From Aradus depressus (lineage: Eukaryota; Arthropoda; Insecta; Hemiptera; Aradidae): DNA of 64,000 nt. The position numbers were made by a program, and so were the translations under genes. How positions within the stretch are numbered: the stretch's first letter is position 1; each line of letters starts with the position of its first letter. Positions 8,391-39,599 of this stretch are shown piece by piece. The notes beneath the pieces were generated by a model that made no database searches, was not told where the DNA came from, and saw only the letters and a list, made by a program, of their open reading frames with translations. The DNA lies in NCBI GenBank assembly GCA_963662175.1, contig OY759221.1, forward strand, positions 36,826,045 to 36,890,044, written 5' to 3'.

Positions 8391-8399
8391 ATGAATCGG

Positions 8400-16690: not shown

Positions 16691-16885
16691 ACCCTAATAA
16701 CTGACTATATAAATGACGTATCGACATGAAATATTATATGTGGATCCAGGAACAAATGACACCTATCAATTTTCAATGAAATTGGCCAAAGGCAAGGGTG
16801 GAATAAGAAGACCTCAATTCAAAAATACTAATACCTACCGATATAACGATTGTATCGACAAAAAATTTAGTATGACGATTTCTTA
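16691..16885 (+). repeat. Family B repeat, right piece
   Basis: TCGACATGAAATATTATATG, GTGGATCCAGGAAC and ACACCTATCAATTTTCA continue family B after the LINE fragment. The segment ACCGATATAACGATTGTATC at about 16,847 recurs at about 17,507 with an added A run. Confidence 0.6.
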
Positions 16886-17576
16886 TGATAGTTAGTTTTG
16901 TTCGATTTAATTTTTAAAAAATTAACAATTTAAAATTTCATGAGTGGGGACAGATATGTGAGTCACTACACTCAGAGGTGACTTCACAGTCAAATTATGT
17001 TTTCTAAATTATTTTACCAGACTGCCTGATGATGAGGGCAACCTCGAAAGCCGGTTAGCATAAAATAATAAATCTTGTGAGGGGTCAGAATACATTTTAC
17101 TTCCTCAGCTATACGAAGTATAGGGGAAGTTACGTAATCTCTCAGAAAATCTATTCGGAGTTTTCAACGGAATTTCATTTTTCCGACCTTCTGACTTAAT
17201 TTTTTTTTTTTTTTTTTTACAAAGAGATATTTACAACTGTATAAAAATATATACAACAAGCAAATATGCTAATACAGACATAATGGCAATGTCAAAATGT
17301 CATGAGGGGAGAAATCACCCATTGGTGACACTTCCTAGTCACTGATTTTCTCTCATTTGTAACTAATCACTGTCACTGTCACTGCTGCTGCTAAGGAGGT
17401 CTCTAGGCCATTGACGCTTAAGCCGTCGTTGGGGAAGTACGGGAGAATGGAGGGTTAAAAAAAATTAATTTAAAAGTTTCTGTCTGTGTCTTTGTACAAA
17501 ACCTGCCGATATAACGATTGTATCGACAAAAAAAAAAAAAAAAAAAAATGTAGTATCACGATTTCTTATGATAGTT
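16886..17576. repeat. Patchwork of retroposon tails and family B ends
   Basis: CCTGATGATGAGGGCAACCT near 17,026 resembles the CCTGATGATG motif of retroposon tails here. CAGCTATACGAAGTATAGGG near 17,107 is a family B end with its small TATACGAAGTATA inverted repeat. Poly-T (17,201-17,218) and poly-A (17,529-17,547) runs separate the pieces. No gene. Confidence 0.5.
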
Positions 17577-17815
17577 ATTATGACCCATGCCCGGGCTTTA
17601 TCTAAGGTCATATCGCCTCTTTCGTCACTATGGTTAACATGAGCCCGACTCTGCATTGGGAGTCCTAAATTTTGCCTACCCAAAATTTTTATTCACTCAG
17701 GCTCGGGACCATCGCTTAACGTTCCATTGGAAGGACATCGTGCTTAAATTTACTTTACTTCTCAGATGAAATAAACTAAGGGCCTCGGCCGGGTTTCGAA
17801 CCCACGATCTTCAAC
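17577..17815 (-). mobile_element. SINE, minus, internally deleted
   Basis: From TTATGACCCATGCCCGGGC to TTTCGAACCCACGATCTT. It lacks about 60 bp of the body (no GAGTACCTGAC block) and the distal half of the tRNA-like head. Box B is present on the minus strand as GGGTTCGAAACCC. Confidence 0.8.
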
Positions 17816-18359
17816 TTAATTAATTCATGCTGGGGAAGTATATCGCCGGTGATTCACCGAACATATTTCAGACATACGAGTAGAGCTCATTGTTCTAACC
17901 GAACGACCAGTCCGGTTAGGTTCGAAGACCAAGGCATGATTTACGAATTACTACACAAGACCTCAATTAGGTTACCAAACCGTTCACTCCCATGGGAATC
18001 TTATCTCTCTACTCCTCATTATCTGACCCTTTTTTCTTCTAGTTTCCGAGGATTGAGAAATTAAAATTGTTCTTTTTTTAATTATTTGTGCGTGTCGGCA
18101 GTGAAATTGACCATTCCCAACATAGAGATGTTAAAGGTGTTTGTGAAATGTAATGCCTTGAAGTAAAAATCTCGAAATGGTTTAAAGGCAGTGGATAGAT
18201 AACAGCTCATCAAATTTTTAAATCAAATAGGGATGGCTTTTCTGATGTGAAAAAATAAAAAGTTAACACTTTCAGCACCGGGTAAGTAAGAATTGAGGAA
18301 ATTCATTGAATATTCTCGATACTCTGATATCATGTCAATTAGGAATTAGGGTACTGTCT
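17816..18359. other. No gene seen
   Basis: Unique sequence with no supported coding exon. Confidence 0.5.
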
Positions 18360-18527
18360 TCTAAGGTCGAAACCTTAGGTTTTTTTATCGGGGAGGTAAA
18401 AGAAACTTGAAGAAGCCGTCCTTTGGATGAGACGTTAAGGAAGACCCCAGGTGAATAAGCCTAGGTAGGCAACATTTAGATCTCTTAATCGACGGAAGAG
18501 TTCTCTGGTAGTAACCGATATGACCAC
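18360..18527 (+). mobile_element. Diverged SINE fragment, plus
   Basis: ACCTTAGGTTTTTTTATCGG, AGCCGTCCTTTGGATGAGAC, GTAGGCAACATTTAG and TCTGGTAGTAACCGATATGA follow SINE order. Heavily mutated; the tRNA-like head is absent. Confidence 0.65.
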
Positions 18528-18561
18528 AATAACTATATGTATATGTATAGGTTAGGTTAGG

Positions 18562-18890
18562 TTTTATGACTCATGCCCGGGCTTTAACTACGAGGTCATA
18601 TCGCCTACTACCAGAGCGCTCTTTCGTCACTCTGGTGGACATGAGCCCGACTCTACTGTGGGAGTCCTAAATTTTGCCTACCCTAAATTTTTATTCATCT
18701 AGGGTAGGGGTCTTTAACGAGTACCTGACATCGTACAGGCTCGGGACCATCGCTTAACGTCCCATCCGAAGGACGGCGTGCTTAAGTTTATTTTACCTCC
18801 CAGATAAAATAAACTAAGGGCCTCGGTCGGGCTACGAACCCACGACCTTGAGTTCAGAAGTCAGGCACGCTTACCACTGAGCTACCGGCT
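18562..18890 (-). mobile_element. tRNA-derived SINE, minus, near full length
   Basis: Runs from TTTTATGACTCATGCCCGGG to GAGCTACCGGC and is nearly identical to the copy at 10,978-11,325, including GGTTAGGTTAGGTTTT just before it. Both copies share the GGTTAGGTT flank, so the pair may be a segmental duplication, or this is part of the SINE 3' end. Confidence 0.88.
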
Positions 18891-19640
18891 AATATAATAA
18901 AATCATAAATATAATATAATATAATAAAAGATGACACAGGCACATCCTAATGTCAAGTATTCACCTACAGATGCCACTTCAAAACTTATTATTTGGTGGG
19001 TGCAAACTTCAAATGCATAATGGTAATTAGGGGGCCTTATTATACCTAACGTAAGAACAATGATCGGATTTGTATAAACTTATGGTCCCATATGAATATT
19101 TTCAAAATCTAGTAATAATAATTATTAAGGCTAGTTAACCTGCAACTATTTTTGAAAAACTACTTTTTTGTCGAAAGTGTATATACATTTTATTGCAAAA
19201 TTTGTAATGGCAGAAAAGAGAAAAATTGTAATCATCAAATTACAGATAATCGCAACAATAATCGTAAAATATGTTTACTAGAATTGAAACTTTGTGCATT
19301 TACTTGGAAGACATTTTTGTTTATTTATTTCTCCCAAGCATTAGGAGGTCATAGCTCCATACGTCTTCTGCATTGTAGTTATCACAAATCAAAGAGCGTT
19401 TGTCCACTTTAAAGTTTTCAGTATTAACAAAGTCTGTCTAAAGAGGCTACTTTGAGAAGTGTAGGTTCCCAAAATTCAGGTTATATTTTCTTTATTTGGT
19501 TCAATTAAAAGTAAGTTGAATAAATTGCGGAAAAATAGAGTATTATGTTAGTTGGCAGGTGTAGTTTGGCAAAAATCGGGACAAACTGCTATATGTCGGG
19601 ACAACATGTGAACTGAAAATAATAATTTGAAGCCCTTTAA
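18891..19640. other. No gene seen; AT-rich spacer
   Basis: An 86-codon frame (19,152-19,412) has no domain I recognise. Confidence 0.5.
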
Positions 19641-19667
19641 TATAGTTTTCTTAGGTATATAAACTCA

Positions 19668-20445
19668 ATGGCAGCACTACAAGCAACCCAAGTATTGTAT
19701 ACTGATAATCCTCTCGTGAGTAGAATCCATAGATACACAGATTATATCTTATCTGAGGGCAAGTCAGTCATATTTATGTGGGTTCCATCACATGAAGGCA
19801 TAGAAGGAAATGAACAAGCAGACCTTGCTGCAAAAGATGCCTCAACTTCAGCTGCTGAATGTAATGAAATTTCTACAAAATCGGATCTCAAACAGATACT
19901 ACATAGTAAGGTTCCACTGGGTTGGACCAACATGTGGAACGAAGTTGACGGCCGCAACAAATTAAAAAACATCAAAAAAGGGGTGGAACCATGGAAAACG
20001 TCCATCAGGGATAACCGACGAGAAGAAGTGGCAGTGATGAGGCTACGAGTGGGTCACAGTCGGCTGAGCCACGGCCACCTGATAAGAAGAGAGCAAGCCA
20101 GGAAGTGTGAACTGTGTGAGGAGGAACTGTCGGTGCGGCACATCCTGGAGGAGTGTCCACTCTATCAGGAGGAACTGGCCAGGAGAGGCATCACCAGAGC
20201 ACTACCAGCAGCACTAGGCAACCAGAGGAGCTGTCGGTGCGGCACATCCTGGAGGAGTGTCCACTCTATCAGGAGGAACTGGCCAGGAGAGGCATCACCA
20301 GAGCACTGCCAGCAGCCCTGGGCAACCACAGGAGCTGTCGGTGCGGCACATCCTGGAGGAGTGTCCACTCTATGAGGAGGAACTGGCCAGGAGAGGCATC
20401 ACCAGAGCACTACCAGCAGCACTAGGCAACCACCGATAGCCACTC
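19668..20445 (+). pseudogene. LINE ORF2 C-terminus: RNase H and zinc-knuckle region
   Basis: The frame reads VIFMWVPSHEGIEGNEQADL, matching the last blocks of LINE-type RNase H (VPSHxGIxGNExAD). It is followed by MRLRVGHSRLSHGHLI and CELCEEELSVRHILEECPLY, the Cys-Cys-His-Cys cluster at the C-terminus of Jockey/I-type ORF2. A 104-bp block around this cluster is present three times in tandem (CTGTCGGTGCGGCACATCCT at 20,127, 20,231 and 20,335). Since 104 is not a multiple of three, the frame shifts at each repeat. The 5' RT part is missing. The 3' tail ends in A-rich sequence near 20,540. Confidence 0.82.
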
Positions 20446-22777: not shown

Positions 22778-22783
22778 TACAAG
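22778..22783. other. Left target-site duplication (TACAAG)
   Basis: TACAAG directly precedes the left terminus AGTAGAAGGG of the palindromic element. The same six bases directly follow its right terminus at 35,566-35,571. Confidence 0.85.
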
Positions 22784-22889
22784 AGTAGAAGGGAAATGGG
22801 GACTCTGGCGCAGTTGCCCCACATGACCTTTGACCCCACGGGGATCACGTGACCCATCACCCCCCACCCTCCCCAGCTCCGAATCACCC

Positions 22890-23525
22890 ACCATAGTACA
22901 TCCCCAGCTCAATAAGTTTCCGCTCTCCCTCTAAACCCCAATAAGTTTCCACTCTCCCTCTAAACCTCAATAAGTTTCCGCTCTCCCTCTAAACCTCAAT
23001 AAGCCCCCCCCCCCTAATTTTTTCATCTCAATTTTGGTCCTTTGAATCACTACCAATCTACTTCCCCATCTAAATAAGTTTCCACTCTCCCTCTAAACCT
23101 CAATAAGTTTCCACTCTCCCTCTAAACCTCAATAAGTTTACACTCTCCCTCTAAACCTCAATAAGTTTACACTCTCCCTCTAAAACTCAATAAGTTTCCA
23201 CTCTCCCTCCTAACCTTAATAAGTTTCCACTCTCCCTCTAAACCCCAATAAGTTTCCACTCTCCCTCTAAACCTCAATAAGTTTCCGCTCTCCCTCTAAA
23301 CCTCAATAAGCCCCCCCCCCCTAATTTTTTCATCTCAATTTTTGTCCTTTGAATCACTACCAATCTACTTCCCCATCTAAATAAGTTTCCACTCTCCCTC
23401 TAAACCTCAATAAGTTTCCGCTCTTCCTCTAAACCTCAATAAGTTCCCCTCTCCCTCTAAACCTCAATAAGTTTCCGCTCTTCCTCTAAACCTCTATAAG
23501 TTTCCGCTCTCCCTCTAAACCCTGC
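22890..23525 (+). repeat. 29-bp subterminal minisatellite, left arm
   Basis: Units of CTCAATAAG-TTTCC(A/G)-CTCTCCCTCTAAAC, about 16 copies, interrupted twice by the same insert of about 80 bp that starts with a run of 11 C. A block of about 325 bp is therefore duplicated. It is mirrored at 34,821-35,450. Such subterminal repeats are often binding sites for proteins that act on transposon ends. Confidence 0.88.
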
Positions 23526-23739
23526 TTTACATTTTTATCTCACCCCTCGCCTGTGCCCCTATATTTTTTTTAATTAGCCCACTAGTAACAATTTTTATAT
23601 TTTTAAAGACTGATTTCGTGACCTTGAACAGGCACTTTCGTGATCTAACATGTCGAACCCTGCATTCGTGTAGCCTACCATATCATGTCCTAGCATGATC
23701 ATCATCATCATTGTATTCAGTATTATTTTAAACTGAAGT

Positions 23740-24060
23740 ATAATGATGGAATAATCGCCTACCTACAATTTTGAGCATGCCGTCCTTCGGTGCCTTGAAA
23801 AGTATTGCATTTAAAAATATAACTCAAAGCTCGTCATATTGAGTATGTTGTCCGATTGGAGTAATATGATGGAAAAATCGCCTACCTACACTTTTGAGCA
23901 TGCCGTCCTTCGGTGCCTTGAAAAGTATTGCATTTAAAAATATAATTCAAAGCTCGTCATATTCAGTATTATTTTAAACTGGAGTAATATGATGGAAAAA
24001 AAAAGCATTTATCTTCAATTCCGAGCACGCTGTCCTTTGGTGTTATTTGTGAATTCTTGT
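23740..24060 (+). repeat. 123-bp direct repeat with SINE-like motif, left arm
   Basis: TTGAGCATGCCGTCCTTCGG occurs at 23,771 and 23,894, each followed by TGCCTTGAAAAGTATTGCAT. A weaker third copy (GAGCACGCTGTCCTTTGGTG) lies near 24,024. The motif matches the GCACGCCGTCCTTCGGATGG body of the local SINEs, so the element appears to have captured and then duplicated SINE sequence. The block is mirrored in the right arm (about 34,286-34,606). Confidence 0.7.
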
Positions 24061-27000
24061 TTTTTTTATTTCAACAATCATTTATTAGTAATTTTGCGTT
24101 TTCTCCAATCTGAAGACATCCTAGACCTTGAAATGGTTTTTGCATGCATTATACATGTTCAAACATGTCGAGACCTGTTGTTGCAGGCATACTTCACCAA
24201 TTTTTATTTCATGATTTAATCTTACATCCCCACGTCAATTAACACATCCAATGTGCTTCCCCATCTTAATACCCCTGCTCTCCCTCCGATTCACTACTCT
24301 CTATCTTCAGTATAGCGGCGTAGCCAATCCATCTCAATTTTCTCACTTATACTTCCCCACCTAATTCTCCCTTTAAACCTTTTACTCAGACACACATCCA
24401 AGCAATTTTCTTTAGATTTCATCATAGTCCACTACTCTTAGCACCATCATGCTTCGCCCCTGTTCAACACCTACAACCTCTCTAGATCGTCTGACATTTT
24501 CATTATAACCCGGTCTACTCATACATAAACCTACATTCTACGTCCATTAGCCTCTCCCTCTGAATCAGTCATATTTACCCACCTCAAATCACCTTCAATG
24601 CACATACCCACATCAATTATTCTAAAACATAATCTTTAATTATAGTTCTAACTCCTCAGACCAATTGTACTTCTTCCAATCCGGCAGAGACTTTGCAACC
24701 CACACCTAATCCTCAGATCTTTCTCCTAATTTTTATGAATCACTTCTACTTCCCCATATCAATTGTCTAATTTTTTTCTCAACTTGTCCTAACCAATTTT
24801 CTGCTCTCTAATTCTAAAAAACCTTTTACTCATACATACCCCGCCCATACACGCGGAGTAATCTTTACATCTAGATGTGTCTTTCCAGGGGTCTCATGGA
24901 TACATTCTTAGGCTAACATGCAGTATATTTAACTTACGTTATGTTACATGATGCTTTTTGTGTACCTAACGGCCAAAACAATTTCTTTCTCCTTCCACCA
25001 ACTATCCTCTACTGTAATTGCTCTCCTAACCTTCTGAAATCCCCGCACAATTCTGACAACGACCAATCCATCCCAATATTCTGCTCTCCACTTCTACTTC
25101 CCCAACATCATATCAAGTCAGAACCCTACAAGTGTAGACTACTGCACCGTCAACATTTCTTTCTGATTCAAACCACTCTACCCCACCTCACTATCCCTCT
25201 AAACCTTCACTCAGACATACCTACACACTTGCATCACCCAAGGGATTTTCTTGATCATCGTTCAGCCAGTATCAGTTTTATTTTTAGACTTTTCTTTTGC
25301 ATGTCCCAAAACCATTCACCCAACTCCACTTCACTCATATCACTACAACCTATTCGATATTCATACTTCCGATCCTCTGATCCTAGGACCCCGGTAGACG
25401 CCAGGCCTTCATTTACACCATATTTTATACAAGTTTGAATGCTTCTCCCTAACTAAACCGCCAGGTCAACATCCCCACAGTTCTCGTCGATATTTAGATT
25501 CGCATTTCCAATATTACTTTACCATCACTACTTTTACGACTAATAACCTGCAATCTAACAGGAACTTAAATCACACAGACACCCCCCTGCACAACACTAC
25601 TCCGGAGATATTCAGAACCCACTCCCACACATCTGAGCACCAATAGAACTCCAACCTAGGACCCCTGCTGTGTAGGCTCACTCACATTGGTACCTGTCAA
25701 CCCATCTTCATAACTGCAAAAGCCGGGGGTAATTTCATATTCAAGTATTTTTCCTAAGATTTCATACTGATGAAGGCTCTAGACCCCTTCATCACCAACG
25801 AGATCAGTTAAAGAACTATTTTATAACACAGCCCCAACGTACATATAAGGTGTGTCCAATACAATAGGAACTCTTCTTATATAGCTATCCTAAGAAGAAG
25901 TCATTGAAAACTTTACCCACTGAGCCGGATAATTATTTATAGTAGAGATACTAATATTTTTTGAATGGGTAGGCGGCCTTGTGTAACATTTCATTATCAG
26001 AGATTAGCTGTGATGTACTTTTCTACAAATCAGAGACTATGCAGAGACAATAGAATCCTTCCGAGAGATCCAATATATCGTCACGACACAACACTTCACA
26101 AAAATACGGAATTGTTCACCTATCCCTATAAACATCACTCAACTGCAACTTCCCCAAATCTAAAAAACTTAGAAGTCGCTCGGACACATTTTTAAAACCC
26201 CACCACTCTTCTATATACTTCCTCAGCTAAATTCTTTCCCTGGTTCCCCTCTATAGTATATCTTAAACTCTAAAGTAACCCACAACCCGAACACCATTCC
26301 TATCAATCTAAACTTTTATTTCTCAGTCATGCACCATAGATAGGGTTTTCTATAGGTGCTATCACCAATCTCCTACATGCATATATATATAATATATTTT
26401 CTATAGTTCCCCCGACATTTTTCTACAACTAACACTCAACCGTTCCTCAATTAATATTATAACGCAGCCCTCACACCCATACTCCATTGTATTTATTTTT
26501 CAAGTCCCAAGCTCTTCGTCTAATATACATCACAGTTCCCACCGGTATTTGAGAACCCATATAGTATTATTGTTCCATCCTCACCCACATCTCATGGATC
26601 CCACAATTCACCCCTCCTTCCCCGCATATATGGTATTGAGAGCCAAGACTCTTACGATGACCCAATACAACAGTTATTTTACCGATTCATCTTCATAGCC
26701 ACAAAACCCGGGATTATTTAATATTTTAGTATATTTCTTTTTTCATTATTTGTCACAGTTTTTTTTTCCCCACATACAACGCCTACTCCACTCAACTGTT
26801 TTTTCTTAAAGTCCTATACATATCTTACATCCTTTCATATATTTATTTTTTATTTAGTCATATTATTTTATATTTTATGCGATTAATATTTATTTACATT
26901 TTCGAAAATTTACGTAAATTATGAAAATTTTGTAGCATATTCAGGAACATTTTTTGTGATGAATGTGACTGCGTAATAACTATCGTGTATATACGAAAAA

Positions 27001-27180
27001 TTGGTGAGTACAAGCTGGTCAGTATTAAGAAATAAAAATCGTATATAGGTTCCATATCATAGGCAGTTTCTTATTGTTGTTGGGGCTAGGTGTATTGCTG
27101 GAAACCCATTAATGATCGGCTCTTCTCGGCTCGTCTCGGATTTTATCGGCTCCTTTCGTTGCATGTAGGATGAAAAAAAC

Positions 27181-27310
27181 TATAAATACGTTCTGTTTGG
27201 TCAGTAGTTATCTGTTTTCATTGTGAACGTGTTAACAACTTTGAGATAAATACAATCTGATCATTCACTGTTTATTGAACCGAAGTTGTCAACCCTGTTA
27301 CAATAAATAC
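27181..27310 (+). promoter_or_regulatory. Three TATAAATAC-type blocks upstream of the HTH gene
   Basis: TATAAATACGTTCTGTTTGG (27,181), ATAAATACAATCTGATCATT (27,246) and ATAAATACGGTCTGTTTGGT (27,303) are three related blocks 57-65 bp apart, ending about 50 bp before the ATG at 27,374. The first has a TATA box at a fitting distance. The spaced repeats suggest a promoter or an operator bound by the element's own HTH protein; that is inference. The mirrored copy is at 31,036-31,165. Confidence 0.5.
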
Positions 27311-27373
27311 GGTCTGTTTGGTGATTATTAGGCAGACTTCATTGATCTAGTAATCCACAGCAGGTTAGATACC

Positions 27374-27904
27374 ATGGGGGTCAAACGAAACGCTCTCACT
27401 ATAGAAAATAAAATGAAAATAATTAAACTTTTTGATGAAGGAGAAAAGGTTGGAGAAATATCGAAACATTTCAAGATTCCTCAATCCACGATTTCTTCAA
27501 TTTTAAAGAGGCGAGCAACCATTTTTCAATTAGATACATGTGGTAAAAGACATATTAAACGAATTAGAACTAATGGTGGAACACACTCCCAGAATACACC
27601 CCCACTTGCCTTCAACGGAGAGAATTACACACAACAACACACAGACTCTTCAGAGGACGATGTGGGTGAACACTCCAGTTCATCACAACAGCAAACGGTC
27701 TCTTCACAGCATGATTCGGGTGAAGACGGAAGTGAACGAATTCATTCAACAGAACACCGAAGAGTAGTATATGGTGATAAAAAACCAACAAAAAAGTTCA
27801 ACCTTCCTAAACCCGTAAAAGGCTTAATACCTCTGTCTAAGGAAAATATGACGTTTTTACGTTTGGTCGGGTATAAAGTTCTGTCATCAACGTATAGATG
27901 TTAG
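27374..27904 (+). CDS. HTH (CENP-B/psq-like) DNA-binding protein, left arm
   Basis: 176 residues. Residues 1-50 (MGVKRNALTIENKMKIIKLF, then EISKHFKIPQSTISSILKRR) form a helix-turn-helix of the CENP-B N-terminal/pipsqueak type. This fold is used by pogo-like transposases and derived regulators to bind DNA. Residues 80-125 are rich in Ser, Gln, His and acidic residues, likely a flexible linker. Residues 133-170 are basic (KKPTKKFNLPKPVKG). The ATG sits in a good context (ACCATGG). There is no DDE catalytic domain, so this is not a complete transposase. The stop overlaps the start of the next ORF by seven bases (ATGTTAG). An identical protein is encoded in the right arm. I infer a regulator or end-binding protein of the element. 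Confidence 0.7.
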   Translation: MGVKRNALTIENKMKIIKLFDEGEKVGEISKHFKIPQSTISSILKRRATIFQLDTCGKRHIKRIRTNGGTHSQNTPPLAFNGENYTQQHTDSSEDDVGEHSSSSQQQTVSSQHDSGEDGSERIHSTEHRRVVYGDKKPTKKFNLPKPVKGLIPLSKENMTFLRLVGYKVLSSTYRC

Positions 27905-28218
27905 ATTTGGATAGTTCAAAGAGGGGTTCGGGTATCATTTTCATTACCGAAGCCATCGGGGGTATAGATGGAATAAGAAAATCTGTTCGACATGAAAACA
28001 CTCACACTTTGCCATCATATAGGTTTATCTATTTAAAAGGTAGATTTTTTCAAGGAGAATGGGACAACGACAGTTGCAACATTCTAAAAGCGGGTTTTGT
28101 TCAATTCCAGTGCTTCCTAGGTAATAACTCGGACTATATTTTGAAGGATATATCAATAATGGGCATTAACTTTATTGGGAATAGGTACACAGCATATCAC
28201 AAACGAAAAGATTATTAA
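27898..28218 (+). CDS. Overlapping ORF of unknown function, left arm
   Basis: 106 residues starting MLDLDSSKRGSGIIFITEAI and ending TAYHKRKDY. It contains FIYLKGRFFQGEWDNDSCN in the middle. I do not recognise a family; there is no clear membrane segment. Its ATG overlaps the stop of the HTH gene by seven bases, and the codon just upstream in its own frame is a stop. It can therefore be reached only by its own ATG, by re-initiation, or by a frameshift within those seven bases. The identical copy in the right arm argues against a random sequencing error. It could also be the broken C-terminal half of one longer protein. Confidence 0.55.
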   Translation: MLDLDSSKRGSGIIFITEAIGGIDGIRKSVRHENTHTLPSYRFIYLKGRFFQGEWDNDSCNILKAGFVQFQCFLGNNSDYILKDISIMGINFIGNRYTAYHKRKDY

Positions 28219-28246
28219 AAAGAATCAAATCGAATGCTGTGAGGTT

Positions 28247-28330
28247 GAAGGCTTGGAGAGGCTATAAACGCACGCAGGTCGTATGAGTGAAGGTTTGGAG
28301 AGGATATAGATGCCCGCAGACCAGTGTGAT
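28247..28330 (+). repeat. 42-bp direct repeat downstream of the ORFs
   Basis: GAAGGCTTGGAGAGGCTATA (28,247) and GAAGGTTTGGAGAGGATATA (28,289) start two units 42 bp apart. They sit between the end of the ORFs and the loop array, and are mirrored at 30,016-30,099. Confidence 0.75.
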
Positions 28331-28669
28331 CACCAGCAGTTCTAAATGTTGAAAACACTGATTTGAGGAAAAGTAGGAGAGTACAATCGTGTTAATATGC
28401 CTGTATTTTTGATTTGCAGGAAAGGGCCTTGCCCCTTTTTATTCATGCTTTGTATCCAAAAGTATATATATTTCAGTTTTCATTTGACTATATGCTTATA
28501 TCATCTCTTTGTGAGAGCGGTTCTAAATCTGCTGGGTAAGTTTCGTTCTTGATCAGTGTATACATGTACCCCCAAAATCCTGTTCCTTTGAACCAAATTC
28601 AACTCAGTCAAATCGATTCAAATCCCTATATTATACTGCAATATTCTCGCTCAAACATCACTACACTAT

Positions 28670-29676
28670 CCTTCTAGTTATAACGATATCGTTATAAATA
28701 TAGCGATATCGTTATAACTACTGTGATATCGTTATAAATATAGCGATATCGTTATAACTCCTGTGATATCGTTATAAATATAGCGATATCGTTATAACTC
28801 CTGTGATATCGTTATAAATATAGCGATATCGTTATAACTACAGTAATATCGTTATAAATATAGCGATATCGTTATAATTCCTGTGATATCGTTATAAATA
28901 TAGCGATATCGTTATAACTACTGTGATATCGTTATAAATATAGCGATATCGTTATAACTACAGTAATATCGTTATAAATATAGCGATATCGTTATAATTC
29001 CTGTGATATCGTTATAAATATAGCGATATTATAACGATATTACTGTAGTTATAACGATATCGTTATATTTATAACGATATTACTGTAGTTATAACGATAT
29101 CGCTATATTTATAACGATATCACAGTAGTTATAACGATATCGCTATATTTATAACGATATCACAGGAGTTATAACGATATCGCTATCTTTATAACGATAT
29201 TACTGTAGTTATAACGATATCGCTATATTTATAACGATATCACAGTAGTTATAACGATATCGCTATATTTATAACGATATTACTGTAGTTATAACGATAT
29301 CGCTATATTTATAACGATATCACAGTAGTTATAACGATATCGCTATATTTATAACGATATCGCTATATTTATAACGATATCACAGGAGTTATAACGATAT
29401 CGCTATATTTATAACGATATCACAGGAGTTATAACGATATCGCTATATTTATAACGATATTACTGTAGTTATAACGATATCGCTATATTTATAACGATAT
29501 TACTGTAGTTATAACGATATCGCTATATTTATAACGATATCACAGGAGTTATAACGATATCGCTATATTTATAACGATATCACAGGAGTTATAACGATAT
29601 CGCTATATTTATAACGATATCACAGTAGTTATAACGATATCGCTATATTTATAACGATATCGTTATAACTAGAAGG
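28670..29676. repeat. Loop array: 40-bp AT-rich tandem repeat with internal flip
   Basis: The 40-bp unit holds two related 20-mers, TAGCGATATCGTTATAACTC and CTGTGATATCGTTATAAATA, each with the palindrome GATATC inside ATAACGATATCGTTAT-like sequence. Units run in one orientation from 28,680 to 29,029 (about 350 bp) and in the reverse orientation from 29,030 to 29,668 (about 640 bp). The orientation switch is thus about 145 bp left of the symmetry centre at 29,173. Flanks CCTTCTAG/CTAGAAGG mark the array edges. The array is the only substantially asymmetric part of the element. Confidence 0.9.
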
Positions 29677-30127
29677 ATAGTGTAGTGATGTTTGAGCGAG
29701 AATATTGCAGTATAATATAGGGATTTGAATCGATTTGACTGAGTTGAATTTGGTTCAAAGGAACAGGATTTTGGGGGTACATGTATACACTGATCAAGAA
29801 CGAAACTTACCCAGCAGATTTAGAACCGCTCTCACAAAGAGATGATATAAGCATATAGTCAAATGAAAACTGAAATATATATACTTTTGGATACAAAGCA
29901 TGAATAAAAAGGGGCAAGGCCCTTTCCTGCAAATCAAAAATACAGGCATATTAACACGATTGTACTCTCCTACTTTTCCTCAAATCAGTGTTTTCAACAT
30001 TTAGAACTGCTGGTGATCACACTGGTCTGCGGGCATCTATATCCTCTCCAAACCTTCACTCATACGACCTGCGTGCGTTTATAGCCTCTCCAAGCCTTCA
30101 ACCTCACAGCATTCGATTTGATTCTTT

Positions 30128-30448
30128 TTAATAATCTTTTCGTTTGTGATATGCTGTGTACCTATTCCCAATAAAGTTAATGCCCATTATTGATATATCC
30201 TTCAAAATATAGTCCGAGTTATTACCTAGGAAGCACTGGAATTGAACAAAACCCGCTTTTAGAATGTTGCAACTGTCGTTGTCCCATTCTCCTTGAAAAA
30301 ATCTACCTTTTAAATAGATAAACCTATATGATGGCAAAGTGTGAGTGTTTTCATGTCGAACAGATTTTCTTATTCCATCTATACCCCCGATGGCTTCGGT
30401 AATGAAAATGATACCCGAACCCCTCTTTGAACTATCCAAATCTAACAT
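30128..30448 (-). CDS. Overlapping ORF of unknown function, right arm
   Basis: Mirror of 27,898-28,218 with an identical 106-residue product. Both copies keep the same seven-base overlap with the HTH gene. If only one arm were active, the other should drift; none has occurred, so either the duplication is very recent or the arms correct each other. Confidence 0.55.
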   Translation of the reverse strand: MLDLDSSKRGSGIIFITEAIGGIDGIRKSVRHENTHTLPSYRFIYLKGRFFQGEWDNDSCNILKAGFVQFQCFLGNNSDYILKDISIMGINFIGNRYTAYHKRKDY

Positions 30449-30972
30449 CTATACGTTGATGACAGAACTTTATACCCGACCAAACGTAAAAACGTCATAT
30501 TTTCCTTAGACAGAGGTATTAAGCCTTTTACGGGTTTAGGAAGGTTGAACTTTTTTGTTGGTTTTTTATCACCATATACTACTCTTCGGTGTTCTGTTGA
30601 ATGAATTCGTTCACTTCCGTCTTCACCCGAATCATGCTGTGAAGAGACCGTTTGCTGTTGTGATGAACTGGAGTGTTCACCCACATCGTCCTCTGAAGAG
30701 TCTGTGTGTTGTTGTGTGTAATTCTCTCCGTTGAAGGCAAGTGGGGGTGTATTCTGGGAGTGTGTTCCACCATTAGTTCTAATTCGTTTAATATGTCTTT
30801 TACCACATGTATCTAATTGAAAAATGGTTGCTCGCCTCTTTAAAATTGAAGAAATCGTGGATTGAGGAATCTTGAAATGTTTCGATATTTCTCCAACCTT
30901 TTCTCCTTCATCAAAAAGTTTAATTATTTTCATTTTATTTTCTATAGTGAGAGCGTTTCGTTTGACCCCCAT
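30442..30972 (-). CDS. HTH (CENP-B/psq-like) DNA-binding protein, right arm
   Basis: Mirror of 27,374-27,904 with an identical 176-residue product and the same upstream TATAAATAC blocks. The two genes point towards the loop array and would produce convergent transcripts meeting in it. Confidence 0.7.
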   Translation of the reverse strand: MGVKRNALTIENKMKIIKLFDEGEKVGEISKHFKIPQSTISSILKRRATIFQLDTCGKRHIKRIRTNGGTHSQNTPPLAFNGENYTQQHTDSSEDDVGEHSSSSQQQTVSSQHDSGEDGSERIHSTEHRRVVYGDKKPTKKFNLPKPVKGLIPLSKENMTFLRLVGYKVLSSTYRC

Positions 30973-33900
30973 GGTATCTAACCTGCTGTGGATTACTAGA
31001 TCAATGAAGTCTGCCTAATAATCACCAAACAGACCGTATTTATTGTAACAGGGTTGACAACTTCGGTTCAATAAACAGTGAATGATCAGATTGTATTTAT
31101 CTCAAAGTTGTTAACACGTTCACAATGAAAACAGATAACTACTGACCAAACAGAACGTATTTATAGTTTTTTTCATCCTACATGCAACGAAAGGAGCCGA
31201 TAAAATCCGAGACGAGCCGAGAAGAGCCGATCATTAATGGGTTTCCAGCAATACACCTAGCCCCAACAACAATAAGAAACTGCCTATGATATGGAACCTA
31301 TATACGATTTTTATTTCTTAATACTGACCAGCTTGTACTCACCAATTTTTCGTATATACACGATAGTTATTACGCAGTCACATTCATCACAAAAAATGTT
31401 CCTGAATATGCTACAAAATTTTCATAATTTACGTAAATTTTCGAAAATGTAAATAAATATTAATCGCATAAAATATAAAATAATATGACTAAATAAAAAA
31501 TAAATATATGAAAGGATGTAAGATATGTATAGGACTTTAAGAAAAAACAGTTGAGTGGAGTAGGCGTTGTATGTGGGGAAAAAAAAACTGTGACAAATAA
31601 TGAAAAAAGAAATATACTAAAATATTAAATAATCCCGGGTTTTGTGGCTATGAAGATGAATCGGTAAAATAACTGTTGTATTGGGTCATCGTAAGAGTCT
31701 TGGCTCTCAATACCATATATGCGGGGAAGGAGGGGTGAATTGTGGGATCCATGAGATGTGGGTGAGGATGGAACAATAATACTATATGGGTTCTCAAATA
31801 CCGGTGGGAACTGTGATGTATATTAGACGAAGAGCTTGGGACTTGAAAAATAAATACAATGGAGTATGGGTGTGAGGGCTGCGTTATAATATTAATTGAG
31901 GAACGGTTGAGTGTTAGTTGTAGAAAAATGTCGGGGGAACTATAGAAAATATATTATATATATATGCATGTAGGAGATTGGTGATAGCACCTATAGAAAA
32001 CCCTATCTATGGTGCATGACTGAGAAATAAAAGTTTAGATTGATAGGAATGGTGTTCGGGTTGTGGGTTACTTTAGAGTTTAAGATATACTATAGAGGGG
32101 AACCAGGGAAAGAATTTAGCTGAGGAAGTATATAGAAGAGTGGTGGGGTTTTAAAAATGTGTCCGAGCGACTTCTAAGTTTTTTAGATTTGGGGAAGTTG
32201 CAGTTGAGTGATGTTTATAGGGATAGGTGAACAATTCCGTATTTTTGTGAAGTGTTGTGTCGTGACGATATATTGGATCTCTCGGAAGGATTCTATTGTC
32301 TCTGCATAGTCTCTGATTTGTAGAAAAGTACATCACAGCTAATCTCTGATAATGAAATGTTACACAAGGCCGCCTACCCATTCAAAAAATATTAGTATCT
32401 CTACTATAAATAATTATCCGGCTCAGTGGGTAAAGTTTTCAATGACTTCTTCTTAGGATAGCTATATAAGAAGAGTTCCTATTGTATTGGACACACCTTA
32501 TATGTACGTTGGGGCTGTGTTATAAAATAGTTCTTTAACTGATCTCGTTGGTGATGAAGGGGTCTAGAGCCTTCATCAGTATGAAATCTTAGGAAAAATA
32601 CTTGAATATGAAATTACCCCCGGCTTTTGCAGTTATGAAGATGGGTTGACAGGTACCAATGTGAGTGAGCCTACACAGCAGGGGTCCTAGGTTGGAGTTC
32701 TATTGGTGCTCAGATGTGTGGGAGTGGGTTCTGAATATCTCCGGAGTAGTGTTGTGCAGGGGGGTGTCTGTGTGATTTAAGTTCCTGTTAGATTGCAGGT
32801 TATTAGTCGTAAAAGTAGTGATGGTAAAGTAATATTGGAAATGCGAATCTAAATATCGACGAGAACTGTGGGGATGTTGACCTGGCGGTTTAGTTAGGGA
32901 GAAGCATTCAAACTTGTATAAAATATGGTGTAAATGAAGGCCTGGCGTCTACCGGGGTCCTAGGATCAGAGGATCGGAAGTATGAATATCGAATAGGTTG
33001 TAGTGATATGAGTGAAGTGGAGTTGGGTGAATGGTTTTGGGACATGCAAAAGAAAAGTCTAAAAATAAAACTGATACTGGCTGAACGATGATCAAGAAAA
33101 TCCCTTGGGTGATGCAAGTGTGTAGGTATGTCTGAGTGAAGGTTTGGAGGGATAGTGAGGTGGGGTAGAGTGGTTTGAATCAGAAAGAAATGTTGACGGT
33201 GCAGTAGTCTACACTTGTAGGGTTCTGACTTGATATGATGTTGGGGAAGTAGAAGTGGAGAGCAGAATATTGGGATGGATTGGTCGTTGTCAGAATTGTG
33301 CGGGGATTTCAGAAGGTTAGGAGAGCAATTACAGTAGAGGATAGTTGGTGGAAGGAGAAAGAAATTGTTTTGGCCGTTAGGTACACAAAAAGCATCATGT
33401 AACATAACGTAAGTTAAATATACTGCATGTTAGCCTAAGAATGTATCCATGAGACCCCTGGAAAGACACATCTAGATGTAAAGATTACTCCGCGTGTATG
33501 GGCGGGGTATGTATGAGTAAAAGGTTTTTTAGAATTAGAGAGCAGAAAATTGGTTAGGACAAGTTGAGAAAAAAATTAGACAATTGATATGGGGAAGTAG
33601 AAGTGATTCATAAAAATTAGGAGAAAGATCTGAGGATTAGGTGTGGGTTGCAAAGTCTCTGCCGGATTGGAAGAAGTACAATTGGTCTGAGGAGTTAGAA
33701 CTATAATTAAAGATTATGTTTTAGAATAATTGATGTGGGTATGTGCATTGAAGGTGATTTGAGGTGGGTAAATATGACTGATTCAGAGGGAGAGGCTAAT
33801 GGACGTAGAATGTAGGTTTATGTATGAGTAGACCGGGTTATAATGAAAATGTCAGACGATCTAGAGAGGTTGTAGGTGTTGAACAGGGGCGAAGCATGAT

Positions 33901-34820
33901 GGTGCTAAGAGTAGTGGACTATGATGAAATCTAAAGAAAATTGCTTGGATGTGTGTCTGAGTAAAAGGTTTAAAGGGAGAATTAGGTGGGGAAGTATAAG
34001 TGAGAAAATTGAGATGGATTGGCTACGCCGCTATACTGAAGATAGAGAGTAGTGAATCGGAGGGAGAGCAGGGGTATTAAGATGGGGAAGCACATTGGAT
34101 GTGTTAATTGACGTGGGGATGTAAGATTAAATCATGAAATAAAAATTGGTGAAGTATGCCTGCAACAACAGGTCTCGACATGTTTGAACATGTATAATGC
34201 ATGCAAAAACCATTTCAAGGTCTAGGATGTCTTCAGATTGGAGAAAACGCAAAATTACTAATAAATGATTGTTGAAATAAAAAAAACAAGAATTCACAAA
34301 TAACACCAAAGGACAGCGTGCTCGGAATTGAAGATAAATGCTTTTTTTTTCCATCATATTACTCCAGTTTAAAATAATACTGAATATGACGAGCTTTGAA
34401 TTATATTTTTAAATGCAATACTTTTCAAGGCACCGAAGGACGGCATGCTCAAAAGTGTAGGTAGGCGATTTTTCCATCATATTACTCCAATCGGACAACA
34501 TACTCAATATGACGAGCTTTGAGTTATATTTTTAAATGCAATACTTTTCAAGGCACCGAAGGACGGCATGCTCAAAATTGTAGGTAGGCGATTATTCCAT
34601 CATTATACTTCAGTTTAAAATAATACTGAATACAATGATGATGATGATCATGCTAGGACATGATATGGTAGGCTACACGAATGCAGGGTTCGACATGTTA
34701 GATCACGAAAGTGCCTGTTCAAGGTCACGAAATCAGTCTTTAAAAATATAAAAATTGTTACTAGTGGGCTAATTAAAAAAAATATAGGGGCACAGGCGAG
34801 GGGTGAGATAAAAATGTAAA

Positions 34821-35450
34821 GCAGGGTTTAGAGGGAGAGCGGAAACTTATAGAGGTTTAGAGGAAGAGCGGAAACTTATTGAGGTTTAGAGGGAGAGGGG
34901 AACTTATTGAGGTTTAGAGGAAGAGCGGAAACTTATTGAGGTTTAGAGGGAGAGTGGAAACTTATTTAGATGGGGAAGTAGATTGGTAGTGATTCAAAGG
35001 ACAAAAATTGAGATGAAAAAATTAGGGGGGGGGGGCTTATTGAGGTTTAGAGGGAGAGCGGAAACTTATTGAGGTTTAGAGGGAGAGTGGAAACTTATTG
35101 GGGTTTAGAGGGAGAGTGGAAACTTATTAAGGTTAGGAGGGAGAGTGGAAACTTATTGAGTTTTAGAGGGAGAGTGTAAACTTATTGAGGTTTAGAGGGA
35201 GAGTGTAAACTTATTGAGGTTTAGAGGGAGAGTGGAAACTTATTGAGGTTTAGAGGGAGAGTGGAAACTTATTTAGATGGGGAAGTAGATTGGTAGTGAT
35301 TCAAAGGACCAAAATTGAGATGAAAAAATTAGGGGGGGGGGGGGGCTTATTGAGGTTTAGAGGGAGAGCGGAAACTTATTGAGGTTTAGAGGGAGAGTGG
35401 AAACTTATTGGGGTTTAGAGGGAGAGCGGAAACTTATTGAGCTGGGGATG
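34821..35450 (-). repeat. 29-bp subterminal minisatellite, right arm
   Basis: Mirror of the left-arm minisatellite, read as GAGGTTTAGAGGGAGAGTGG units. Carries the 14-base G run that differs from the 11-base run on the left. Confidence 0.88.
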
Positions 35451-35565
35451 TACTATGGTGGGTGATTCGGAGCTGGGGAGGGTGGGGGGTGATGGGTCAC
35501 GTGATCCCCGTGGGGTCAAAGGTCATGTGGGGCAACTGCGCCAGAGTCCCCATTTCCCTTCTACT

Positions 35566-35571
35566 TACAAG
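35566..35571. other. Right target-site duplication (TACAAG)
   Basis: Exact repeat of 22,778-22,783. Joining the flanks without the element would give AATACAAGGATACAAGG. Confidence 0.85.
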
Positions 35572-36060: not shown

Positions 36061-36422
36061 TATATATGTATATTGTCTAAGAGAAATTGGAAGTCAGTTT
36101 CATAGGTTAAGTTAGTGTACAGTTGAATAGTAAGATGTGAATAGTTGCTTTTAGTGTTTATTAAATAAGGTCCAGTTTTCTAATACATATTAGGTTGTGA
36201 ATTCTTTTGAACGAGAGTAATTTTTATGAGTTATATAAAAATAGTTTTGTTTTTTGTCCTCACTTTTTCAGTTTGTCATGTTCCATTTTGAACTGGCAGG
36301 GTCAAGCGTGTACAGTTGAAGGATCCTAACTGAATATTGTGGATAATTTATTACGACAAATTAGACTGAGAAGTGTAGGCAAGTCTGTGACAATATATTA
36401 GTTATTACTTTATTTTTATTTG

Positions 36423-36748
36423 TAATTGTAGGAGTATTGAGGGTCAGTCAAAGATGGAAAAAAAAAAAACACTATTCAGATGCCAACGTTTCGATATATT
36501 TTATATCATCATCAGGGCCTACAAACATGGGGGAGAAATCAAGATTAGAATCAAAAATAAACAAAATAAAAAAAAATAAAAAAAAAAAAAAAAAAAAATT
36601 TTTTATTTTGTTTATTTTTGATTCTAACCTTGATTTCCCCCCCATGTTTGTAGGCCCTGATGATGATATAAAATATATCGAAACGTTGGCATCTGAATAG
36701 TGTTTTTTTTTTTCCATCTTTGACTGACCCTCAATACTCCTACAATTA
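36423..36748. repeat. Fold-back hairpin, ~140-bp arms around poly-A/poly-T
   Basis: TAATTGTAGGAGTATTGAGG at the left end returns inverted (CCTCAATACTCCTACAATTA) at the right end; positions add to 73,171. The arms include TGCCAACGTTTCGATATATT and its complement. The tip is a long A run joined to a short T run (about 36,570-36,606). It looks like two head-to-head or tail-to-tail copies of a retroposon 3' end joined at their A tails. Open frames on both strands are by-products. Confidence 0.85.
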
Positions 36749-36964
36749 GAATCCACAGTCGCTAATCAACATCTTTATTTTTATTGTATATAATGCAATA
36801 AAACATTTTGCCTTTTAATAACAATGATTTTAGATGCGACTTTCAACTCTCTTTTTTTTTTCAGAACACATTGAAAAACGTCATTTACAACATAAACAAC
36901 CGACGTTAATGATATGCAATTCATCTAATCTGTAATATTAATCAGAAAAACAAAATATATTTTC
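36749..36964. other. No gene seen
   Basis: AT-rich spacer. Confidence 0.4.
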
Positions 36965-37515: not shown

Positions 37516-38346
37516 CTACTGTATTCTTGAATTCTTGATACATATAGTAGGAATTGAATAATTCTCCATCCACTAAGATAGCAGATGTGAGTTGATATTA
37601 TCGAACCATGGATATCGACATCTCTAGCCATAGGAGCAGGTGTTACTACAGATATCACTCTTCGCCCCCTTTTGTTCTGTCTCTATTGTTTTGACACACC
37701 GGATCATACATCACTTTGCATTACTCCTGAGACACCATTTATATCAGAACACTCTGACTTGCCAACAACTTAGTAGTTCACCGGGCTGTGACTAAAAGAG
37801 AGACTAGACTCTATCATAGTCGTTGCTTCACAAGGATCTTCCCAACAGGTCAGGATCCATCGCCAAAAAGTGGAAAGCGTTTGGCCCATTCGAATTACCA
37901 GTTGGGAACGTACACTTCCTCAATATAGAACGGATTACTCATTGCGAATATCCGACAACAGATTTTCACGTTTCAAGGGTAACCTAAAAATGTTTGACCA
38001 TTTTGCGAGGATGACTGCGTGTATGTGATTGAAAAGTTGTGAGCGCACTGCTGCAAAAACGATAGTAGCTATGAACTTAACATTTGTAAAGAAGGGATCA
38101 CTTGGGCTAACTTAGATCTGGTTAGATTTTGGCCGAAATTAAACGAAAATGTCCACTTGTCTTGTCTCTCACTCGGTTTAAATTCAATGCCAGATCTCCG
38201 GGTTGTCAGGTTCATTCCATCAGCACTCCATTATTCATCAATTTTTATTTTACTTTTCTTATATATTACGAGAATATTTCTTATTTTAGTCACTTTTTCT
38301 TTTCTCATTTTTTCTTTTTACTAAAGATTCTATTTTTATTCATTTA
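37516..38346. other. No gene seen
   Basis: Unique sequence; no exon I can support. A 73-codon frame (38,129-38,350) has no domain and ends in T-rich sequence. Confidence 0.5.
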
Positions 38347-38861
38347 CTAGCAGTAATACCCGGCGTTGCCCGGGGAACTTTGACTTTTCTCCCAATATCT
38401 CCTATAAGGCTATTCAGTTCCTCGACAGTACATTCATGATGTTATAATTTTCAATTATTCAAGGCTTATAGTCCTTCAACTGTAGTAACGCTAGCTTTGG
38501 AGCTAAAACTAATTTATTCAAAAATATTTCTCATTAATCGTTGCAATGGTTTTCGAGTTACAAAGATTGCGTGAGTGGATGCTGGGATGGACCAGGGGTT
38601 GATTAAAAAATAGACCTTAACCTTCCGGTAGATAAAACTTATCTATTCAAAAAGATTCCTCATTAATCATTTCAGTGGTTTTTGAGTTACAAAGATTGCG
38701 TGGGTGGATGCTGGGATGGACCAGATATTGAGGTACTAATACGCCTATAACCCTCCACAGACGATGACGAACAAATTAAAAAAAAAATTAATCAAATCCA
38801 TCAAGCCGTTCGTGAGTTATAGCGGTACAACGCACAGACATTTTCAGCTTTATATATATGA
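38347..38861 (-). mobile_element. Short Helitron copy 4 (515 bp)
   Basis: Reverse orientation: CTAG at 38,347-38,350 next to the hairpin CCCGG-CGTTGC-CCGGG. The other end is the complement of TCATATATATAAAGCTGAAA at 38,861. Flanks are A before and T after, as expected for A|T insertion. It shares its two ends, and the GGCTTATAGTCCTTCAACT segment, with Helitrons 1-3 but has none of their arrays. Instead it has two copies of a segment of about 115 bp (GAGTTACAAAGATTGCGTG...GCTGGGATGGACCAG). Confidence 0.9.
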
Positions 38862-39599
38862 TTTATTCTTTCTCTTTTTTTGTATTGCTTCTCTTCATTA
38901 GTTTTCTCTATATCTTAATATGTACTTTTTTTTTTTTTTTTTTCTCCAAGGGCTGATTGAATCACTGCGGCCAGAGTAGGCCTATTGTGTGCCCTTTGTG
39001 TGTTGGTCCCTACAGCTGTACCTTTAATAAAGCAGATCTAGCGATGCCCTAAGACCACTTTACTCCGGGGCCTTACAAGATACCGCTTATGTTTATGATA
39101 TAATCAAAAATCTTTTCAAGTAAATTTGTAAAAAAAAACTGAAATACATATTTTATATGCTGTACACTAGGGTGGAACGAAAAAATCACCTTTTGATTTT
39201 TAATTTGGAATAGCGCGGAAAAGTTGCCTTTTAGTGTAGATAAGATAAATTAAAAATATGCAAAATATTGGAGTACGTCTTGAGGTGCCGCAAGGACCAG
39301 TTTAATGTGGCAATGAAGTAGAAACAAACATTTTGCAGCTGTAACATTTGTAATCATTAAGGATACAGAAGTAAGAAATACAAAGTTTGACATTTGAGGG
39401 AGGGTGAGAGTGATTGATCTGTAAGCGTGGTTGGTATAATAAGTCCTGTTAGGGCCACATTACATAATTTTTTTCACAGAAACTACTTTATGTAGTCGAC
39501 CTTGACGACTAAGATCAGCGTGGCCCATGGGGCCTTAGAGAGATTTGACATCGCTCAATTTTGAAATATAACTGAGTAAACATATTGGTGTTTTAGTTA
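38862..39599. other. No gene seen; transposon scraps
   Basis: GTGTGCCCTTTGTGTGTTGG...CCTTTAATAAAGC (about 38,980-39,040) looks like a retroposon 3' tail. CACTAGGGTGGAACGAAAA at 39,166 resembles the end of a DNA transposon, but I found no partner end. Confidence 0.4.

What the first reader, a model, noticed from the sequence alone, without database searches (positions are those of the whole stretch)
22784..35565. A 12.8-kb near-perfect palindromic mobile element with Polinton-like ends
Seen directly: two arms of about 5.9 kb are inverted copies; comparing all mirrored ORFs and several other segments I found one substitution and one homopolymer difference. The termini AGTAGAAGGG...CCCTTCTACT are flanked by a 6-bp direct repeat TACAAG. 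Known: Polinton/Maverick elements make 6-bp duplications and have AG-starting ends, but their terminal repeats are usually under about 1 kb and they carry polymerase, integrase and capsid genes. Here the inverted repeats make up the whole element and none of those genes is present. Inferred: a fold-back derivative of a Polinton, or an undescribed family with giant terminal repeats. The TSD exactly at both palindrome ends argues against a library or assembly hairpin artefact, which would not stop at a duplication.
Basis: partly seen in the sequence, partly recalled or inferred. Interest (0 to 1): 0.92.

Follow-up and report, generated by a model that had tools for sequence, protein, structure and literature searches.

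The report
Palindromic satellite family of a Polinton
A 12.8-kb mobile DNA element in what looks like an arthropod genome is a near-perfect mirror image of itself; it belongs to a multi-copy family built the same way, derives from a virus-like Polinton found in the same genome, and its two halves are kept almost identical copy by copy.

Summary
Observation confirmed: window 22784-35565 has inverted arms of about 5.9 kb that, outside a central repeat array, differ by one substitution and a 3-nt homopolymer change, flanked by TACAAG. The window's own 698-Mb genome answered two searches: terminus and arm gene recur as inverted pairs. Of ten paired loci fetched, all have the same ends, eight have exact 6-bp duplications and nine are palindromes. 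The tenth, E9, is a coding Polinton with DJR capsid, rve integrase, A32-like ATPase and PolB. The palindrome's arm carries collinear remnants of three neighbouring E9 genes. Inner arms of one copy differ by 0-0.125% (10 of 10 copies); arms of different copies by 0.06-4.95%, median 1.46%. Something equalises the arms within each copy.

Best reading: a non-autonomous fold-back (satellite) family derived from an internally deleted Polinton and moved by Polinton integrase; arms probably re-equalised through self-annealed hairpin DNA during replication. Chromosomal gene conversion is the main rival. New variant of a known kind.

The parts
22778..22783 (+). target-site duplication TACAAG, left
35566..35571 (+). 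target-site duplication TACAAG, right
22784..28684 (+). left arm of the palindrome (5,901 nt)
29662..35565 (-). right arm of the palindrome (5,904 nt)
22784..24173 (+). outer 1.39 kb of the left arm: related to the right (polymerase-side) tip of the coding Polinton E9 (949 columns at 95.7%, 443 at 97.5%; outermost 0.5 kb, tandem repeats, at 79%); mirrored in the right arm
22908..23521 (+). 29-bp tandem repeats in the left arm; mirror at 34825-35441
23714..24000 (+). 123-bp tandem repeats in the left arm; mirror at 34346-34632
24201..26900 (+). C-rich non-coding stretch, probably a decayed array related to the tip repeats; mirrored in the right arm
   Evidence: weak
27374..27904 (+). ORF1, 176 aa: CENP-B-type helix-turn-helix (residues 4-50) joined to the C-terminus of the small Polinton gene that lies before the capsid gene (residues 129-174)
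30442..30972 (-). ORF1, mirror copy
27898..28218 (+). ORF2, 106 aa: fused remnants of the Polinton capsid N-terminus and of the next gene
30128..30448 (-). ORF2, mirror copy
28238..28323 (+). 86 bp at 93% identity to E9 DNA beyond its last gene, the innermost Polinton remnant of the arm
28685..29661 (.). central array of 40-bp units with palindromic TATAACGATATCGTTATA cores; direction reverses near 29030

Best explanation
The element is one copy of a multi-copy, non-autonomous family of palindromic derivatives of a Polinton (Maverick / adintovirus type). Shown here: fixed AGTAGAAGGG..CCCTTCTACT ends, mostly with 6-bp duplications; a coding Polinton (E9) with the same ends in the same genome; in each arm, collinear remnants of three neighbouring Polinton genes; and inner arms that are almost identical within a copy although copies differ from one another. 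Inferred: an internally deleted Polinton was folded back at the repeat array, so that its polymerase-side end now stands at both sides and the other end, about 2 kb, is lost. The product keeps the cis-acting ends and is replicated and integrated by Polinton polymerase and integrase in trans, much as a snap-back defective genome lives on its parent. In protein-primed, strand-displacement replication the displaced strand can anneal to itself as one long hairpin with the array as loop; repair or copying of one arm from the other makes the arms identical again before each integration. The helix-turn-helix protein of the arms may bind the central palindromic array. Likelihoods: Polinton-derived palindromic family 0.95; moved by Polinton integrase in trans 0.85; arms equalised through a hairpin replication intermediate 0.55; ORF1 protein binding the array 0.35.
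For: 22 of 22 ends of 11 elements begin AGTAGAAGGGAAATGGGGAC; exact 6-bp duplications in 9 of 11. E9 has DJR capsid (1.3e-119), rve, chromodomain and Pox_A32 matches and a PolB whose relatives bear PF03175 and include a protein named PolB of an adintovirus. Arm DNA at 27759-28069, 28088-28168 and 28238-28323 matches E9 in the same order and orientation at 68%, 74% and 93%, with no match to the reversed control. ORF1 residues 129-174 match the small E9 frame before the capsid gene at 65% (30 of 46); ORF2 matches the capsid N-terminus (23 of 53) and the start of the next gene (15 of 42). The arm tip fits E9's right tip better than its left. Within-copy arm difference 0-0.125% (n=10) against 0.062-4.953% between copies (n=180); for 18 of 20 arms the mate is strictly the nearest sequence. 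ORF1 hits form 60 convergent pairs (120 of 150 scored hits), 43 of 60 with equal scores against 7.5% of random pairs.
Against: E9 is a relative, not the parent: DNA identity of the remnants is 68-93%, and the region from the 1.39-kb tip to ORF1, the helix-turn-helix part and the array have no counterpart in E9. The ten loci were chosen because their termini were paired, which favours intact palindromes. E1 and E10 lack a duplication. E1's arms are no closer to each other than to the window copy. In the gene segment some different copies are identical; in the outer segment E6's arms differ by 1.5%, and E5's right arm lacks it. Arrays that run mainly one way in six of ten copies show that the arms are not re-made by a turn inside the array in every cycle. 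ORF1 shows no excess of synonymous change (1:5, 1:5, 3:15, 2:5, 1:5 synonymous to other codons against the window copy), so a conserved function is not shown. Transposition in trans was not observed.
Confidence: 0.82

Rival explanations
1. Same family and same mobilisation, but the arms are kept identical by ordinary chromosomal gene conversion after insertion (cruciform or intrachromosomal recombination), not by replication through a hairpin.
For: Long inverted repeats so close together are expected to convert (general knowledge); lesions shared by both arms of one copy (E8 ORF1; E4 and E5 ORF2) fit conversion as well as hairpin repair; E5 and E6 also show differences confined to one arm, so arms do change after insertion.
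Against: All ten copies, whatever their distance from the rest, lie in the same narrow range of 0-0.125%, which also fits arms that are born identical in young insertions; no copy with old, half-converted arms was seen in this small and selected set.
Confidence: 0.35
2. A foldback transposon of a cut-and-paste superfamily (Mutator- or P-type, as FB, Tetris or Galileo) that resembles a Polinton by chance.
For: Anatomy matches foldback elements: flanking domain, tandem-repeat domain, inner domain, middle array (Tetris, passages of PMC4079207); Galileo copies reach arms of 4.2 and 4.7 kb and extend arms by tandem repeats (passages of PMC4168063).
Against: 6-bp duplications, not 7-10; tips shared with a coding Polinton, and Polinton gene remnants in order.
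Confidence: 0.03
3. IS3EU/GingerRoot-type transposon, which also makes 6-bp duplications.
For: 6-bp duplications (passages of PMC10045372).
Against: Those have TA..TA or TG..CA ends; here AG..CT and Polinton remnants.
Confidence: 0.01
4. Assembly or library artefact.
For: Long palindromes are hard to assemble, and polishing can make arms look more alike (general knowledge); reads were not available.
Against: Unlike flanks with a 6-bp duplication exactly at the ends in 8 of 10 palindromic copies; each copy has its own arm sequence, up to about 5% from others; the two array halves of the window copy differ.
Confidence: 0.01

Closest known systems
Polinton / Maverick (adintovirus type); here E9, G000:C7:35577951-35591783
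   Same: Same first 20 bases at both ends, related tips, 6-bp duplication; remnants of three E9 genes in the palindrome's arms
   Different: E9 carries capsid, integrase, ATPase and polymerase genes and is not a palindrome; intact vertebrate Mavericks have terminal repeats of 46-1,447 bp (passage of PMC8097293). Kilobase repeats do occur in polinton-like viruses, whose finders allowed up to 8 kb (passages of PMC12220804)
Foldback elements: Tetris (Mutator-like) and Galileo (P superfamily)
   Same: Very long inverted repeats with internal tandem repeats, little or no coding capacity; foldback layout said to arise independently from different superfamilies (passages of PMC4079207 and PMC4168063)
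   Different: Duplications of 7-10 bp, other superfamilies, arms up to 1.7 kb (Tetris) or 4.2/4.7 kb (longest Galileo copy); here 6 bp, Polinton ends, arms of 5.9 kb
Snap-back defective genomes of adeno-associated virus
   Same: Self-complementary genome that keeps one end and part of the genes and replicates when the missing functions are supplied (passages of PMC8235507)
   Different: Unrelated virus with another way of replication, not a germline family; analogy of working only. Palindromic incomplete adenovirus genomes would be a closer parallel but are recalled, not looked up

Membership tests
Polinton/Maverick (autonomous element) | carries protein-primed PolB, rve integrase and capsid genes | tested here: not met
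   ORF1 and ORF2 and the other five frames of 75 aa or more tested in the left arm give no such domain; only short remnants of the capsid gene and its neighbours
Polinton/Maverick (autonomous element) | terminal inverted repeats of 46-1,447 bp (range in intact vertebrate elements, PMC8097293) | tested here: not met
   arms of 5.9 kb
Non-autonomous Polinton derivative | 6-bp target-site duplication | tested here: met
   window copy; 8 of 10 palindromic copies and E9
Non-autonomous Polinton derivative | Polinton-type end motif | tested here: met
   AGTAGA..TCTACT against (AGT)2//(ACT)2, 5 of 6 bases
Non-autonomous Polinton derivative | same ends as a coding Polinton in the same genome | tested here: met
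   E9
Non-autonomous Polinton derivative | remnants of Polinton genes in collinear order | tested here: met
   three DNA pieces in order, two ORFs
Non-autonomous Polinton derivative | moved in trans by Polinton enzymes | not testable with these tools
   inferred from shared ends
Foldback element (architecture class) | long inverted repeats with tandem repeats and a middle domain | tested here: met
Mutator-type foldback (Tetris) | 8-10-bp duplications | tested here: not met
   6 bp (Tetris values)
Galileo (P superfamily) | 7-8-bp duplications | tested here: not met
   6 bp (Galileo values)
IS3EU/GingerRoot | TA..TA or TG..CA ends | tested here: not met
   AG..CT ends (family values)
Snap-back (self-complementary) defective genome | one genome end present twice in mirror image, the other lost | tested here: met
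   both arms carry the tip most like E9's right end; arm remnants stop about 2 kb short of E9's left end; parent not identified
Snap-back (self-complementary) defective genome | made and copied by replication through self-annealed DNA | not testable with these tools
   inferred from equalised arms

The most novel reading that the evidence does not exclude
A self-sustaining class of self-complementary Polinton satellites: the mobile form is a strand that folds into one 5-6-kb hairpin with a repeat-array loop; every transposition cycle passes through it and so rewrites both arms to one sequence; and the arm-encoded helix-turn-helix protein acts on the loop as a dedicated replication or packaging factor. 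This would be a hairpin-genome way of life for an integrase-type element, held at high copy number in an animal germline.
Probability: 0.3. Interest if true: 0.87.

Novelty: new variant of a known kind. Interest (0 to 1): 0.75.

Why it matters
How Polintons replicate inside animal cells is little known. A natural family whose two halves are equalised copy by copy offers a genomic readout of a replication intermediate, and shows how a satellite-like derivative of an endogenous virus can become a multi-copy germline family. It also puts many very large, nearly perfect palindromes (possible fragile sites and sources of long double-stranded RNA) into one animal genome, and shows foldback architecture arising in the Polinton lineage as well as in the Mutator- and P-type elements known for it.

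Tried and rejected
ORF2 and ORF1 against 5.8 billion proteins: none at E 1e-3; the tool's length limits exclude relatives much longer than the query, such as a full capsid protein. Viral contigs by protein and by DNA pattern: no relatives; three contigs hold the 18-mer of the array once each and were not followed. Prokaryote contigs: none. Rfam: no match. Structure model of ORF2 alone: useless (mean pLDDT 32.7). A profile of the tip repeat found one weak match in the inner arm (E 0.23), while the shared-word test was significant: that the C-rich stretch is a decayed array is likely, not proven. The tip as single-stranded DNA is not unusually structured (z 1.30). A TATA-like box at 27181 with TCAGT at 27201 is badly spaced and not claimed. 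A candidate intron at 27815-27897 that would join ORF1 and ORF2 is rejected: its codons belong to the stretch of ORF1 that is 65% identical to an E9 frame, and E9's small frame overlaps the capsid start in the same way. An earlier comparison of the inner arm with E9 used one strand only and found nothing; with both strands the remnants appeared. E9's long frame gave no polymerase hit in Pfam, PHROGs, NCBIfam or the PDB; its identity rests on its homologues. The 165-aa frame at 24941-25438 is not claimed as a gene: no domain and an open frame as long arose in 94 of 2,000 shuffles. Inversion of the middle by recombination between arms was considered from the array directions and dropped, since insertion direction alone explains them.
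Full report
Observation. The palindrome is real at the stated coordinates. Outside the central array the arms 22784-28684 and 29662-35565 differ by one substitution and a 3-nt homopolymer length. The centre is an array of 40-bp units built on TATAACGATATCGTTATA that reverses near 29030; its halves share the order of the first nine 20-bp variants and then differ in order and number. TACAAG flanks both ends, and of word lengths 4-9 only 6 matches; 116 of 200,000 random spans have equal 6-bp flanks. The host looks like an arthropod: a chitin-binding domain lies at 47507-47737, and the three best relatives of the E9 polymerase are insect proteins (Chrysoperla, Halyomorpha, Rhodnius), though spiders, a coral and a mussel also appear in the list. 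No species name is available.

Anatomy of an arm, from tip to centre: a tip of about 120 bp, 29-bp tandem repeats, 123-bp repeats, about 2.7 kb of C-rich non-coding DNA, ORF1, ORF2, then the array. GC skew in 500-bp steps over 23000-26999 is -0.15 to -0.79, and positive in the mirror stretch. The C-rich stretch shares 27 ten-letter words with the tip array against 2.9-4.0 expected, reached by 0 of 300 shuffles for each of three shuffle orders; a profile search was weak. ORF1 begins with a CENP-B-type helix-turn-helix (E 3.9e-11); an open frame as long as its 190 codons arose in 2 of 2,000 shuffles. ORF2 had no match in Pfam or the protein collection.

The family. When the window's genome (697.7 Mb, 74 contigs) answered, the 217-bp terminus gave 870 first-look candidates, of which 40 were scored. 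Many rows lie as + and - pairs 11-14 kb apart; some termini had no partner in the capped list. ORF1 gave 834 first-look candidates, 150 scored. Of these, 120 form 60 convergent pairs less than 6 kb apart; 43 of 60 pairs have equal bit scores, against 7.5% of random pairs. Three of the 150 contain a stop, but the 150 are the best-scoring ones, so this does not measure decay. At least 60 paired copies are thus seen; that there are hundreds is inference from the candidate numbers.

Ten loci with paired termini were fetched as separate halves, chosen for the pairing. With the window copy this makes 11 elements. All 22 ends begin AGTAGAAGGGAAATGGGGAC. Exact 6-bp duplications flank 9 of 11 (not E1, E10; that of E4 is CCCCCC). 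Nine of the ten fetched loci are palindromes over most of their length; in E5 one arm lacks about 1.1 kb.

The Polinton. The tenth, E9 (13,833 bp; duplication TTAAAG), carries frames for a DJR capsid protein (PF21738, 1.3e-119), an rve integrase with chromodomain (1.5e-12, 2e-07), a Pox_A32-like ATPase (4e-05) and a protein with a weak, below-cut-off match to adenovirus endoprotease (0.08). Its 1,270-aa protein matches 7,980 of 7,981 scored candidates over residues 600-1270; relatives carry PF03175 and one is named PolB of an adintovirus. Direct domain and PDB searches did not call it a polymerase. The window arm's outer 1.39 kb matches E9's right, polymerase-side tip in pieces of 95.7% (949 columns) and 97.5% (443), the repeat-rich outermost 0.5 kb at 79%; E9's left tip matches at 80.7-89.9% apart from one 97.8% piece of 232 columns.

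Descent. With both strands compared, three arm pieces match E9 in the same order and orientation: 27759-28069 (68%, E 4e-31), 28088-28168 (74%, E 6e-09) and 28238-28323 (93%, E 3e-32); the reversed sequence gives none. ORF1 residues 129-174 match a 66-codon E9 frame that overlaps the capsid start (30 of 46, E 3e-16). ORF2 residues 4-52 match the capsid N-terminus (23 of 53, E 6e-11), and residues 64-105 the start of the next gene (15 of 42, E 1e-08). So an arm reads as a Polinton from its polymerase-side tip with most genes removed, the tail of a small gene, the head of the capsid gene and the head of the next gene left in order, ending about 2 kb short of the other tip (E9 position 1974), where the array and the mirror copy begin. 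The helix-turn-helix part, the C-rich stretch and the array have no counterpart in E9. At 68-93% identity E9 is a relative, not the parent.

Arms are equalised within each copy. Over the inner 3.2 kb, arms of one copy differ by 0.000-0.125% (10 of 10 copies, median 0.063); arms of different copies by 0.062-4.953% (180 comparisons, median 1.464). For 18 of 20 arms the mate is strictly nearest; both arms of E1 tie with the window copy. E5 is 0.09% between its arms and 4.0% or more from any other arm. Alignment gap blocks agree between arms in 7 of 10 copies, not in E3, E5, E6. ORF1 is frameshifted in both arms of E8; ORF2 is damaged in both arms of E4 and E5 and in one arm of E6. In the gene segment alone the contrast is weaker (within 0-0.222%, between 0-6.315%), and in the outer segment E6's arms differ by 1.495% (n=9, E5 left out for lack of the segment). 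Plain inheritance of both arms would have let left- and right-specific differences build up in the family; the tree pairs mates instead.

How it works. Shown: same ends as a Polinton, 6-bp duplications, Polinton remnants, equalised arms. Inferred: Polinton integrase and polymerase act in trans on the two like ends; the displaced strand folds on itself, and differences between arms are removed before integration. The array runs mainly one way in E2, E3, E4, E6, mainly the other way in E5, E10, and has clear internal reversals in the window copy, E1, E7, E8. It thus behaves as a loop that need not be palindromic, which favours annealing of whole arms with repair, or gene conversion, over a fresh fold-back in every cycle. 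ORF1 shows no excess of synonymous change, so its function is open.

Literature. Passages, not whole papers, were seen of PMC8097293, PMC12220804, PMC4168063, PMC6431247, PMC12910113, PMC8235507, PMC4079207, PMC10045372, PMC10622511, PMC8363768 and PMC11071308. Among the papers listed by the ten searches (two searches showed 20 each of 1,254 and 83, one search showed 10 of 11) I saw no title or abstract start that describes a palindromic or foldback family derived from Polintons. The library lacks most subscription papers, and Repbase reports were not searchable.

Noticed in passing
window 726-10231 and 62810-63996: Large satellite-like arrays with units of about 143, 441 and 33/66 bp at both ends of the window.
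   Followed up: no
window 59919-61407: About 39 copies of a 38-bp repeat.
   Followed up: no
window 36420-36751: A second, small palindrome: 333 columns at 90.7% to its own reverse complement, just right of the element.
   Followed up: no
window 38346-38863 and 53484-54009: Direct duplication of about 0.5 kb at 97%.
   Followed up: no
window 16215-20433: Reverse transcriptase and RNase H fragments; a 104-bp stretch is repeated three times in the RNase H frame.
   Followed up: no
window 54946-54969 and 23890-23913: 24 identical bases shared by the 123-bp repeats of the arm and an unrelated repeat of the window.
   Followed up: partly
G000:C6:4236056-4287482: Cluster of several termini and ORF1 copies, some on the same strand; E10 of this cluster lacks a duplication.
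   Followed up: no
L011 and L015 (G000:C14:15066813 and 15067437): Two termini in the same direction 624 bp apart, like a nested or repeated end; E1's left flank also holds part of a terminus.
   Followed up: no
window 23000-26999 and its mirror: Very strong mirrored strand asymmetry (GC skew to about 0.79) in the non-coding arm, absent in the gene part; cause unknown.
   Followed up: partly
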